Assembly: GCA_025362495.1 (NCBI GenBank)
Contig: JANYGI010000114.1
Location: 1 to 64,000 of the forward strand
DNA: 64,000 bases
Reading direction: 5' to 3'
Source: Byssovorax sp.
GTDB lineage: Bacteria; Myxococcota_A; Polyangia; Polyangiales; Polyangiaceae
Shown piece by piece: positions 29,585 through 40,024 of this stretch. The position numbers and the translations under genes were made by a program. The notes under the pieces were generated by a model, which was given only the letters and a program-made list of their open reading frames with translations, did not search any database and was not told where the DNA came from. Position 1 is the first letter of the stretch; each line of letters starts with the position of its first letter.

Positions 29585-30370
29585 TCAAGGCCCCTTCCGC
29601 CGAGAGATGCCGAGCGCCAGCAGATGGGCCAGCAGATCGACGCCGCCGGCCGAGCTCACCGACAGTGTCGACGCCGTCGCGGTGCCGGAGCGAGTCAATC
29701 GGCTCGTCGCGCCCCGGGGGTTCAGCAGCCGCTCGTCGTAGACGGCCCCGGGCGCCCGCGCGCGGAGCTGGGCAATCGTCGCGAGGAAGTTCTGGGCGCT
29801 GGACACCGTGAGCGCCGCCCCGAGCCCGGCGTACGACGTCCCCCGCTCGCGCAGCAACCAGGGAGTCTCCCCCTCGGCGCGGAACACATAGAGCACCTGC
29901 TCGCTCGCCTGCGAGGCGCTCTTCTGTTCCTTCGTCACCGTCTTGGTGAACGCGAGCCCGCCCGTGAGCAGGGCCTTCCCCGCGCTGAACTGCCGACTCT
30001 TCGTCTCCCCGTGGGTCTCGGTGCTGGTCCGGTGCATGGCCCGGAGCAGCGCCGTGATCTCGTCATACCGTAGCTCGTGCTCCCCGGCCGTGATCACCTC
30101 CGCGCCGAGCTCGAACCCCCGCATCGCAATCATCGCCGAGCTCGGCACGACGGCCGCCGCATCGATGGCAAACGCCCGGTGCTTGCGCGCGCGAATCTTC
30201 GCCAGGAGCCCCAGCGCCTCCCCCCGATCCACCGTCGTCAACACCACCGCCGGCAACCCGGTGAGCAGGTTGAGCCGCTCCTCGTACATCGTGGTGCCAA
30301 GATCCCCGGCCAGCGCCGCAGCCTCCACCTCGAGCGTCGTCGCGAGCTCCCCGATGGCAACGATGAACAT
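29585..30370 (-). CDS. Conserved protein of unknown function
   Basis: The 261-residue protein starts with MFIVAIGELATTLEVEAAALA and has an alternating strand/helix pattern (GLPAVVLTTVDRGEALGLLAKIRARKHRAFAIDAAAVV) that suggests an alpha/beta N-terminal half. The second half is predicted to be membrane-free and Ser/Ala-rich. No signal peptide or catalytic motif is seen. ATG 30370 gives the conserved-looking N-terminus; the longer frame would run into the divergent GST gene's leader. Confidence 0.6.
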   Translation of the reverse strand: MFIVAIGELATTLEVEAAALAGDLGTTMYEERLNLLTGLPAVVLTTVDRGEALGLLAKIRARKHRAFAIDAAAVVPSSAMIAMRGFELGAEVITAGEHELRYDEITALLRAMHRTSTETHGETKSRQFSAGKALLTGGLAFTKTVTKEQKSASQASEQVLYVFRAEGETPWLLRERGTSYAGLGAALTVSSAQNFLATIAQLRARAPGAVYDERLLNPRGATSRLTRSGTATASTLSVSSAGGVDLLAHLLALGISRRKGP

Positions 30371-30506
30371 CGCCGCGGAGCCTAGCACCGCGCCGTGCGA
30401 GCGCGGATCGCGATCCCGCCGTGCGACCACGGAACCCGGAGCGTTCCGCCGTCGTTGGCTGGACGGCGTGTCGACGTCGAGGGCGAACCTGGTGTATGAA
30501 CCTGCC

Positions 30507-31382
30507 ATGAGTGATCAACCGACCTACACGCCTCCCAAGGTCTGGACCTGGGACAGAGACAATGGCGGGGCCTTCGCCAGCATCAACCGTCCGATCGCCG
30601 GCTCGACGCACGAGAAGGAGCTTCCGGTCGGCCGCCATCCGCTCCAGCTCTACTCGCTTGCCACGCCGAACGGCGTGAAGGTCACGGTGATGCTCGAAGA
30701 GCTCCTCGCGGCCGGGCACACGGGCGCCGAATACGACGCGTGGCTCATCAAGATCAACGAAGGAGATCAGTTCGGGAGCGGCTTCGTGGCCGTGAACCCG
30801 AACTCGAAGATCCCCGCCCTCGTGGACCGGAGCGGCCCCGCGCCCCTTCGCGTGTTCGAGTCGGGCGCCATCTTGCTCTACCTCGCGGAGAAGTTCGGCG
30901 CCTTTCTGCCCACGGATCACGTGACGCGCACCGAGTGCCTGTCGTGGCTGTTCTGGCAGATGGGGAGCGCCCCGTACCTCGGCGGGGGCTTCGGTCATTT
31001 CTATGCCTACGCGCCGATGAAGATCGAATACGCGATCAATCGCTTCGCCATGGAGGTGAAGCGGGAGCTCGACGTTCTCGACCGTCGTCTCGCCGACAGC
31101 GAGTACCTCGCCGGCAGCGAATACACGATCGCCGACATGGCCGTGTGGCCCTGGTACGGAGCGCTCGCGAAAGGGCTCGTCTACGGTGCTGGCGAGTTTC
31201 TCGCGGTGCACGAGTACAAGAACGTTCAGCGCTGGACCGACGCCATCGCTCTTCGCCCTGCCGTGAAGCGTGGGCGCATGGTCAATCGGCCCTTCGGCGA
31301 ACCGTCCGAGCAGCTCCTCGAGCGCCACGAGGCGAGTGACTTCGATACGAAGACGCAAGACAAGGTGCAGAAGGCGACCTGA
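30507..31382 (+). CDS. yghU: Glutathione S-transferase-like disulfide reductase (YghU type)
   Basis: The 291-residue cytosolic enzyme uses glutathione and belongs to the Nu-class GST group typified by E. coli YghU. The N-terminal lead (PPKVWTWDRDNGGAFASINRP), the Thr/Asn-bearing active loop SLATPNGVKVTVMLEEL, NPNSKIPALVDR, FESGAILLYLAEKFG (glutathione gamma-Glu binding) and the C-terminal FGHFYAYAPMKIEYAINRF all match. It lies divergently from the 29585-30370 gene with a 136-bp spacer that likely has both promoters. Confidence 0.9.
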   Translation: MSDQPTYTPPKVWTWDRDNGGAFASINRPIAGSTHEKELPVGRHPLQLYSLATPNGVKVTVMLEELLAAGHTGAEYDAWLIKINEGDQFGSGFVAVNPNSKIPALVDRSGPAPLRVFESGAILLYLAEKFGAFLPTDHVTRTECLSWLFWQMGSAPYLGGGFGHFYAYAPMKIEYAINRFAMEVKRELDVLDRRLADSEYLAGSEYTIADMAVWPWYGALAKGLVYGAGEFLAVHEYKNVQRWTDAIALRPAVKRGRMVNRPFGEPSEQLLERHEASDFDTKTQDKVQKAT

Positions 31383-31620: not shown

Positions 31621-31690
31621 CAATCTGACTCCCGCTCCGCCCCCCCGCCCGGCGGGCCCCGAGCCCGCCGAACCGCCCCACCAAGGTACT

Positions 31691-31815
31691 GAACCGAAGG
31701 GGATTTTCGCCGAGGCGGGTGCGCGGCCAAGGCGGAGGAGGAGCCGTACGCAAGCAAGTACGGTGACGACGACAACGCCGGCCCCGCGCCCGCCTCGGCG
31801 AAAAGCCCCCGGTTC
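31691..31815. repeat. 125-bp compound hairpin element
   Basis: The outer arms 31691-31719 and 31789-31815 pair over about 27 positions with few mismatches (for example TTTTCGCCGAGGCGGG with CCCGCCTCGGCGAAAA). Inside, GGCC-AA-GGCG (31725-31734) faces CGCCGGCC, then a purine loop GAGGAGGAG faces TGACGACGACAA. An apical stem CCGTAC/GTACGG encloses GCAAGCA plus one base. This ordered architecture suggests a folded RNA or a non-autonomous mobile element. The right arm overlaps the stop codon of the minus-strand lipoprotein gene, so it could also end that transcript. Confidence 0.75.
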
Positions 31816-32338
31816 AGGGTTTGAGGGCGTGCCAGGGCCTCGGGATCATGGCCCAGTGGCCGTTGATGAACATCAGGCCGTCGTAGGCCGATCCCGTCTT
31901 GCTGCCGGGCTCCACGAACTTGAAGCAATAGACCGTCAGGCCGGGCTTCATCTCGGCGGCGACGTCCTTGTAGCCAGCGGGGCAGTTGGGCGAGCCGGCC
32001 TTGAGCTCGTCGGTCGTGGCGCTGAACAGGAGCAGCTCGGTCTGGGTCGGCCTCGCGGCCTTGATCACGTGCCCGCCGCTGTTCCAGGCGGCGTCCGTGG
32101 CGGCCTGGATCTTCGTCGCGGCCTCGCCGTTGAACACGGTCGCGTAGTCGCCCGCATCGGCGCGCAGGCTCTTGCTGAGCGCGGCCACGTCGGCGCCCGG
32201 CTTCACGTACTCGGCGAGCAACGCCTTGGCTCCATCCGCCGTGCCCGGGAAGGCCGGGTGCGTGACGGTGACGCTCTTCTTGCAGCCCGCCGCCGCGATG
32301 CCCAGGGCCAGCACCGTAATCGCGAAGACCGTTCTCAT
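31814..32338 (-). CDS. Putative lipoprotein of unknown function
   Basis: The 174-residue product has a clear lipoprotein signal (VFAITVLALGIAAAGCKKS). The mature domain starts at PAFPGTADGAKALLAEYVKPGAD, a helical segment, and ends with beta-rich stretches (TELLLFSATTDEL, VYCFKFVEPGSKTG, GLMFINGHWAMIPRPW). Two cysteines (PNCPAGY, VYCFKF) could pair. I recognise the general pattern of small myxobacterial lipoproteins but no function. Its 3' end runs into the 31691-31815 hairpin. Confidence 0.75.
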   Translation of the reverse strand: MRTVFAITVLALGIAAAGCKKSVTVTHPAFPGTADGAKALLAEYVKPGADVAALSKSLRADAGDYATVFNGEAATKIQAATDAAWNSGGHVIKAARPTQTELLLFSATTDELKAGSPNCPAGYKDVAAEMKPGLTVYCFKFVEPGSKTGSAYDGLMFINGHWAMIPRPWHALKP

Positions 32339-39873: not shown

Positions 39874-40024
39874 TGTGAGGCGGGCGTCCGTGCCCGCCGC
39901 ATGGACCGGCAAGAGCGAGCACCCTCTTCGATCGAGATCCGCTCGCATCAGCCTTCATTGCCAGCCCGGAAAGGCTTGGCTGCCAGCGAGACTCCATGTG
40001 GCGGGCACGGAGGCCCGCCCCACA
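39874..40024. repeat. 151-bp element with 32-bp inverted ends
   Basis: Left end 39874-39905 and right end 39993-40024 are inverted copies matching at 29 of 32 positions. Each end also holds its own hairpin, GGCGGGC-N6-GCCCGCC. The 87-bp centre has no gene. It lies between convergent genes, right after the TGATC repeat. It resembles a MITE-like repeat or a double-hairpin transcription end. Confidence 0.75.

What the first reader, a model, noticed from the sequence alone, without database searches (positions are those of the whole stretch)
31691..31815. A 125-base compound hairpin with ordered internal loops
The outer stem of about 27 pairs, an inner GGCC/GGCG stem, a GAGGAGGAG versus TGACGACGACAA internal loop and a CCGTAC/GTACGG apical stem make an orderly fold, far beyond a simple terminator. 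It could be a structured RNA, a MITE or a REP-like repeat. Such purine-rich internal loops are often conserved for binding.
Basis: partly seen in the sequence, partly recalled or inferred. Interest (0 to 1): 0.6.

Follow-up and report, generated by a model that had tools for sequence, protein, structure and literature searches.

The report
Mobile compound hairpin at gene ends
The hairpin is one of about 22 copies, in this soil-bacterium genome, of a repeated palindromic element whose inner core is kept the same from myxobacteria to tiny candidate-phylum bacteria and which tends to sit exactly at the stop codon of ordinary genes in one fixed direction; it has no entry in the RNA family library and what it does is unproven.

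Summary
The hairpin is real (31689-31817; -99 kcal/mol, z -9.9) and is not unique. About 22 copies (77-89% identical) are dispersed over the 10.8 Mb genome, with a second subfamily. Stems vary with compensation (16 pairs changed on both sides, 0/500 shuffles); the purine-rich internal loop and apical stem are nearly invariant. A covariance model finds it in 26 of 108 genomes of the family. An exact core pattern finds it in CPR bacteria, Tahibacter, Bacillota and Deltaproteobacteria, where a second internal-loop motif not in the query recurs (24 of 49; shuffles 0.96). Rfam has no matching family. One strand folds better in 124 of 127 copies. That strand is usually the template strand of the neighbouring gene, whose stop codon (mostly TAG) abuts the hairpin: 29 versus 2 in relatives, 18 versus 3 in other phyla. 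The abutted genes look intact, and 28 orthologues of one lack the element. In a relative, copies with a related core carry the ends of an 889-bp IS5-family insertion sequence and TTA/TAA target duplications. Best reading: a non-autonomous mobile palindrome acting as a folded single strand. Whether as DNA (attC-like) or RNA, and how gene ends are chosen, is unproven.

The parts
31689..31817 (+). The element: compound hairpin, member of subfamily A1; the + strand is the better-folding strand
31689..31698 (+). 5' basal arm (CTGAACCGAA); subfamily consensus GGAGCCGTCG, freely varying with compensation
31699..31719 (+). 5' side of the long middle stem, with the conserved GATTTTCGYCGA motif
31734..31743 (+). 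GGAGGAGGAG, 5' half of the conserved internal loop (G-C pairs alternating with tandem G.A mismatches); nearly invariant among 20 aligned copies
   Evidence: pairing scheme read from the sequence
31744..31763 (+). Apical stem-loop CCGTACG..GTACGG; loop sequence and length vary
31764..31775 (+). TGACGACGACAA, 3' half of the conserved internal loop
31789..31817 (+). 3' middle and basal arm (CCCGCCTCGGCGAAAAGCCCCCGGTTCAG), ending over the stop codon of the convergent gene
31814..32338 (-). Convergent gene whose stop codon TGA (31814-31816) lies inside the outermost stem; 174 aa, no Pfam match; its template strand is the folding strand
31650..31670 (+). Small extra hairpin CGGCGGGC-CCCGA-GCCCGCCG to the left; several other A1 copies have a different small hairpin directly at their left end
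29943..31382 (+). Left neighbour: open reading frame with glutathione S-transferase domains (true start probably near 30500), about 307 nt from the element

Best explanation
This is one copy of a non-autonomous, palindromic mobile element. Its working form is probably one single strand folded into a compound hairpin, with a basal stem free to vary as long as it pairs and a fixed centre (purine/GA internal loops plus CGTAC/GTACG apical stem) that a protein, or a folded RNA/ssDNA, would recognise. SHOWN by sequence: dispersed copies, compensatory stems, conserved core, strand bias, recurrence in other phyla, fixed-orientation abutment of stop codons (mostly TAG), absence of the element behind 28 orthologues of one abutted gene, and in one related subfamily terminal repeats and target duplications shared with an IS5-family insertion sequence. 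INFERRED: the folded strand, which is the template strand of the neighbouring gene, is a single-stranded DNA recombination or insertion substrate, in the way an integron attC site folds only from its bottom strand, used by an enzyme not identified here; in some genomes the hairpin has acquired the ends of a resident insertion sequence and also moves as an ordinary MITE. Why gene 3' ends are chosen is not explained.
For: Dispersed copies; covariance-model copies and second subfamily. Compensation: 95.9% of cells paired, 16 of 46 pairs with two-sided changes against 5.6 in shuffles, covariation 0.184 against 0.080, none of 500 shuffles and no slid register reaches it. Relatives: 26 of 108 genomes of the family, several with 10 or more copies of a genome-typical subfamily. 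Other phyla; independent AGGC/CAAC loop motif in 24 of 49 copies, shuffle mean 0.96, maximum 5. Strand bias: the + strand is more stable in 20/20, 71/74 and 33/33 copies. Fixed orientation at gene ends: 29 right versus 2 left in relatives (p 5e-7), 18 versus 3 in other phyla (p 0.0015), TAG in 13 of 18 abutting stops against 64 of 203 background stops (p 0.001), and 9 of 13 against 8 of 38 in this genome (p 0.005). Tail-to-tail pairs, one element per convergent gene: (L157, L160). Abutted genes keep complete C-terminal domains; the PHO4 transporter ends at about the same place as its orthologues, and 28 orthologues readable past the stop show no element there. Mobility in a related subfamily: copies flanked by TTA/TTA (5 copies) or TAA/TAA (2); an 889-bp insertion sequence with matching ends and TTA flanks, coding for an IS5-family transposase.
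Against: No target-site duplication and no partner insertion sequence were found for the window's own subfamily. No recombinase or transposase has been linked to the abutting class; neighbourhood clustering gave no shared partner protein. G.U tolerance and strand bias fit RNA as well as ssDNA. G.U counts are not biased in the other Polyangiaceae set (151 versus 165), although stability is. Many positive contigs are metagenome bins, so some taxon labels may be wrong. No integron-type core sites and no cassette arrays seen.
Confidence: 0.45

Rival explanations
1. A structured RNA element. The + strand is transcribed by the convergent gene or by antisense transcription, folds when RNA polymerase reaches the right end, and blocks or processes transcripts exactly at the border of the neighbouring gene, protecting it from antisense transcription; copies spread because the hairpin is useful or harmless there.
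For: Compensatory stems and conserved non-canonical loops; strand bias; the left gene is convergent in 27 of 45 copies where both neighbours were called and the right one is on the minus strand; tail-to-tail pairs (L157, L160); some tendency of loop variants to change together across the stem, AA/GCC 12, GA/GAA 10, AA/GAA or GA/GCC 7.
Against: Many left neighbours are not convergent; no U-tract; no Rfam family; conserved loops are not needed for termination; does not by itself explain genome-specific expansion.
Confidence: 0.3
2. An ordinary MITE family: internally deleted insertion-sequence derivatives whose hairpin is only the by-product of terminal inverted repeats, with no function of the centre.
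For: One related subfamily has insertion-sequence ends and TWA duplications, two others have long terminal repeats with TA flanks in several copies.
Against: The centre, not the ends, is what is conserved between genomes and phyla while the ends differ; the 889-bp insertion sequence does not contain the core; ordinary MITE insertion does not predict one-sided stop-codon abutment.
Confidence: 0.15
3. REP/REPIN elements moved by a RAYT (Y1 tyrosine transposase).
For: Intergenic palindromes, many copies, strand-specific fold.
Against: No Y1_Tnp in this genome nor in 7 of 8 other positive genomes of its family tested; size and anatomy differ from the 20-40 bp REP units of PMC3733652.
Confidence: 0.03
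4. A strong bidirectional intrinsic terminator, unrelated copies converging by chance.
For: Position between convergent genes and next to what look like some tRNA 3' ends.
Against: 77-89% identical dispersed copies, a nearly invariant loop and no U-run at either end.
Confidence: 0.04

Closest known systems
ERIC/IRU/RU-1 and Correia/NEMIS repeats (reviewed in PMC2229807)
   Same: About 100-200 bp, palindromic, dispersed non-autonomous repeats with a highly base-paired transcript; for ERIC (127 bp) orientation matters for its effect on mRNA.
   Different: Those families are tied to one bacterial group each; here the core recurs in several phyla, the basal arms are free, one strand is favoured, and copies abut stop codons in one orientation.
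Integron attC sites
   Same: Long imperfect palindromes at the 3' end of a gene; the folded strand is the template strand; sequence mostly free, structure kept (attC properties from general knowledge).
   Different: No RYYYAAC/GTTRRRY core sites at the ends of the window copy (inspection); the conserved part is the apical centre rather than the base; scattered beside ordinary chromosomal genes, not in cassette arrays; no integrase linked.
IS5-family MITEs
   Same: In relative G102 the copies have the ends (GAGCGCC..GGCGCTC) and TTA/TAA target duplications of an 889-bp insertion sequence with an IS5-family transposase.
   Different: The core is not part of that insertion sequence, and other genomes carry a similar core with other ends.
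REP/BIME/REPIN with RAYT
   Same: Extragenic palindromes in many copies.
   Different: Different size and anatomy, no RAYT; the window's second family (39874-40024) looks much more REPIN-like.

Membership tests
MITE (miniature inverted-repeat transposable element) | Short, non-coding, dispersed copies | tested here: met
   About 22 copies of about 125 nt in this genome; indels of 1, 3 and 4 nt between copies argue against coding.
MITE (miniature inverted-repeat transposable element) | Terminal inverted repeats shared with an autonomous element of the same genome | tested here: inconclusive
   Met in the related subfamily of G102; for the window's subfamily the best matches to its end in the own genome are known element copies or isolated weak hits, and no full insertion sequence was identified.
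MITE (miniature inverted-repeat transposable element) | Target-site duplication | tested here: inconclusive
   TTA/TTA and TAA/TAA in 7 of 9 G102 copies; none visible around the window's subfamily.
REP element moved by RAYT | Y1 tyrosine transposase in the genome | tested here: not met
   0 matches to PF01797 in this genome; the same search found it in 5 of 14 control genomes.
REP element moved by RAYT | 20-40 bp GTAG- or CGTC-tagged palindrome unit (PMC3733652) | tested here: not met
   The unit is a single 129-nt compound hairpin.
Integron attC site | RYYYAAC / GTTRRRY core sites at the two ends | tested here: not met
   The window copy reads ACTGAAC and GTTCAGG near its two ends, neither fitting the consensus; the subfamily consensus ends are GGAGCC/GGCTCC.
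Integron attC site | Lies at the 3' end of a gene, template strand folded | tested here: met
   met for about half of the copies.
Integron attC site | Recombined by IntI, gene cassette array | not tested
   No array seen among the loci read; intI was not searched for.
Intrinsic terminator | Hairpin followed by a U-run | tested here: not met
   + strand continues GGTTTGAGGGCG, - strand continues TACCTTGGTGGGG.
Known Rfam RNA family | Reaches a family's gathering score | tested here: not met
   No match in the window; 15 loci with an element from other genomes gave only two unrelated tRNAs; permissive scan of the element gave only matches far below the families' gathering scores.
Structured RNA | It is transcribed as an RNA | not testable with these tools
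   No expression data available.

The most novel reading that the evidence does not exclude
A new class of structured mobile element, shared by several bacterial phyla: a hairpin with a conserved non-canonical core that inserts in one orientation exactly at the 3' ends of genes (stop codons and perhaps tRNA ends) through its folded template strand, without an integron and without a RAYT, and that can pick up the ends of resident insertion sequences.
Probability: 0.35. Interest if true: 0.9.

Novelty: new variant of a known kind. Interest (0 to 1): 0.72.

Why it matters
If the reading holds, an element too short and too variable for sequence search has spread between myxobacteria, candidate-phyla bacteria, gammaproteobacteria and Bacillota, choosing the exact border of genes. 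That would mean either a second attC-like way of using folded DNA strands, or an unrecognised class of RNA at gene ends. Both can be tested directly because the core pattern finds copies in organisms with a named strain, such as Tahibacter soli.

Tried and rejected
REP/RAYT: no Y1 transposase in the own genome and in only 10 of 26 positive genomes. A shared neighbour gene: all-against-all comparison of proteins around 182 loci gave only ordinary families; one recurring HIT-domain protein looks like a housekeeping gene whose 3' end is used in two deltaproteobacteria. Truncation of the abutted genes by insertion: rejected for the genes examined. An insertion sequence with the window subfamily's own ends in this genome: not found. 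Rfam: nothing. Viral contigs with the core pattern: 0; plasmid and phage records with one copy, distant blastn: none. Literature searches found no description of this element; no bioRxiv and few subscription papers are in the library. Coding function: rejected because of indels between copies. The msDNA/retron idea was considered from memory only and not pursued.

Full report
The observation. The compound hairpin is present at 31689-31817, a little wider than given. As RNA it folds at -99 kcal/mol against -57.3 +/- 4.2 for dinucleotide shuffles (z -9.9), and the + strand beats the - strand (-86.3). The described parts are all there. The internal loop can be read as a helix of G-C pairs alternating with tandem G.A mismatches; that is my reading of the sequence, not a measured structure.

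It is a repeat family. A DNA search of the window's own genome (10.8 Mb, 240 contigs) finds about 22 copies at 77-89% identity, on many contigs. Oriented and aligned, they share ends near GGAGCC...GGCTCC and a nearly invariant centre, GGAGGAGGAGCCGTACG-loop-GTACGGTGACGACGACAACG, while the stems between differ from copy to copy. For the structure named, 95.9% of cells pair, 16 of 46 pairs have changes on both sides (5.6 in shuffles) and the covariation score is 0.184 against 0.080; no shuffle and no slid register comes near. A covariance model finds the same copies plus a second, longer subfamily with a related centre. C218:153448 and C201:1 share a nested hairpin at the same place in the core, as expected if a changed copy was itself copied.

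Relatives. In 108 genomes of the same taxonomic family the model hits 26, several with 10 or more copies. Genomes tend to have their own subfamily: basal arms differ but pair, and the loops recur. An exact pattern for the centre, scanned over 84,980 species genomes, returned 86 stretches, not only in Polyangiaceae but in Zambryskibacteria, Uhrbacteria, Paceibacterota, Parcubacteria, Tahibacter soli, Bacillota/Peptococcaceae and Deltaproteobacteria. Nearly all fold as the same kind of compound hairpin; two actinobacterial matches (L217, L236) look like chance matches in coding sequence. The second internal loop, which was not in the query, recurs as AGGC...CAAC(A/G) in 24 of 49 copies outside the family, against 0.96 in shuffled flanks. 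R1 itself has matches at E <= 0.05 in 22 of 26 carrier genomes tried, including CPR genomes of under 1 Mb. No Rfam family matches, and no viral contig has the core pattern.

Strand. In 20 of 20 own-genome copies, 71 of 74 copies in relatives and 33 of 33 copies from other phyla the strand called + here is the more stable one; in the first and third sets it also has more than twice as many G.U pairs. Selection seems to see one single strand.

Position. In the own genome the element often lies between convergent genes, and the gene on the right, read on the - strand, ends within -4 to +1 nt of the hairpin in 13 of the roughly 20 copies that could be scored. In relatives, using a wider window (-12 to +3), 29 of 81 copies abut a right-hand stop codon and 2 a left-hand one (seven of the 81 are the own genome's second subfamily); outside the family (-16 to +3), 18 of 37 against 3. 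The abutting stop is TAG more often than expected (9 of 13 against 8 of 38 in this genome; 13 of 18 against 64 of 203 in other phyla). Sequences at L116, L181, L182 and L184 read as tRNA 3' ends beside the hairpin; this was read by eye, not by a tRNA finder. Two convergent genes may each have their own element, tail to tail (L157, L160). The copies in G102 and G055 that carry insertion-sequence-like ends mostly do not abut genes. Pfam domains of abutted genes run to or near their C-termini (TamB, response regulator, OmpA, PHO4). The PHO4 gene of locus L005 ends near the same residue as its orthologues, and the 28 orthologous loci readable past the stop show no element there. So the element was most likely gained in this lineage at the natural end of an intact gene. 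Why it sits so precisely there is unexplained.

Movement. In the complete genome G102, nearly identical copies end in GAGCGCC...GGCGCTC and are flanked by TTA/TTA (five) or TAA/TAA (two); two further copies have imperfect flanks. The same genome has several 889-bp elements with matching ends; the one read in full is flanked by TTA and codes, in two overlapping frames, for an IS5-family transposase. It does not contain the core. Copies in G055 and G012 have other terminal repeats, several with TA flanks, and G066 has a similar core with different arms. So at least some members move, or moved, as MITEs, while the core is shared by members with different ends. For the window's own subfamily neither target duplications nor a partner insertion sequence was found.

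Interpretation. I favour a non-autonomous mobile hairpin whose folded template strand is the working form, by analogy with attC sites, but this analogy is an inference: attC core sites are absent and no enzyme is identified. An RNA acting at gene ends is the main rival and is not excluded. An ordinary MITE does not explain a conserved core across phyla; RAYT-driven REPs are disfavoured for this genome by the missing transposase.

Limits. Gene calls come from a simple codon-usage script on contig fragments, gene-end windows differ between data sets, and hairpin ends were taken from predicted folds. Many carriers are metagenome bins. Related copies are not independent, so p-values overstate the evidence. 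The copies from other phyla were chosen by a pattern that includes part of the core, so conservation of that part is not independent evidence; the second loop is. No expression data were available.

Noticed in passing
window 39874-40024: A second, unrelated repeat family: two inverted arms, each itself a small hairpin GGCGGGC-CTCCGT-GCCCGCC, around a variable centre; tens of matches in the genome. It looks like a REPIN, yet the genome has no Y1/RAYT transposase match.
   Followed up: partly
L001-L021, about 40 nt left of the element: Several A1 copies have an extra small hairpin with pairing arms directly at the left end (L004, L014, L021 and weaker in L002, L006, L011); the right flank shows none.
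   Followed up: partly
L020 and L022 (G000:C218:153448, G000:C201:1): Two copies carry a similar nested hairpin insertion in the internal loop, so a modified copy probably spread.
   Followed up: no
L024 (G000:C139:117449) and L097 (G000:C128:46093): Remnants that lack the core but keep one or both arms; probably internal deletions.
   Followed up: no
L286 (G102:C1:403431-404625): A copy of the IS5-family element, interrupted by extra sequence, lies directly beside a copy of the hairpin element with a single shared TTA between them.
   Followed up: partly
L116, L181, L182, L184: The hairpin begins within a few bases of what looks like a tRNA 3' end, not only stop codons (read by eye).
   Followed up: no
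L105 (G046:C98, contig end): The predicted arms extend to more than 90 bases and lie near the contig end; may be an assembly artefact at a palindrome.
   Followed up: no
relatives, internal loop near the base of the hairpin: Loop variants AA/GCC and GA/GAA tend to go together (22 of 29 copies with these four combinations), suggesting a non-canonical interaction.
   Followed up: partly
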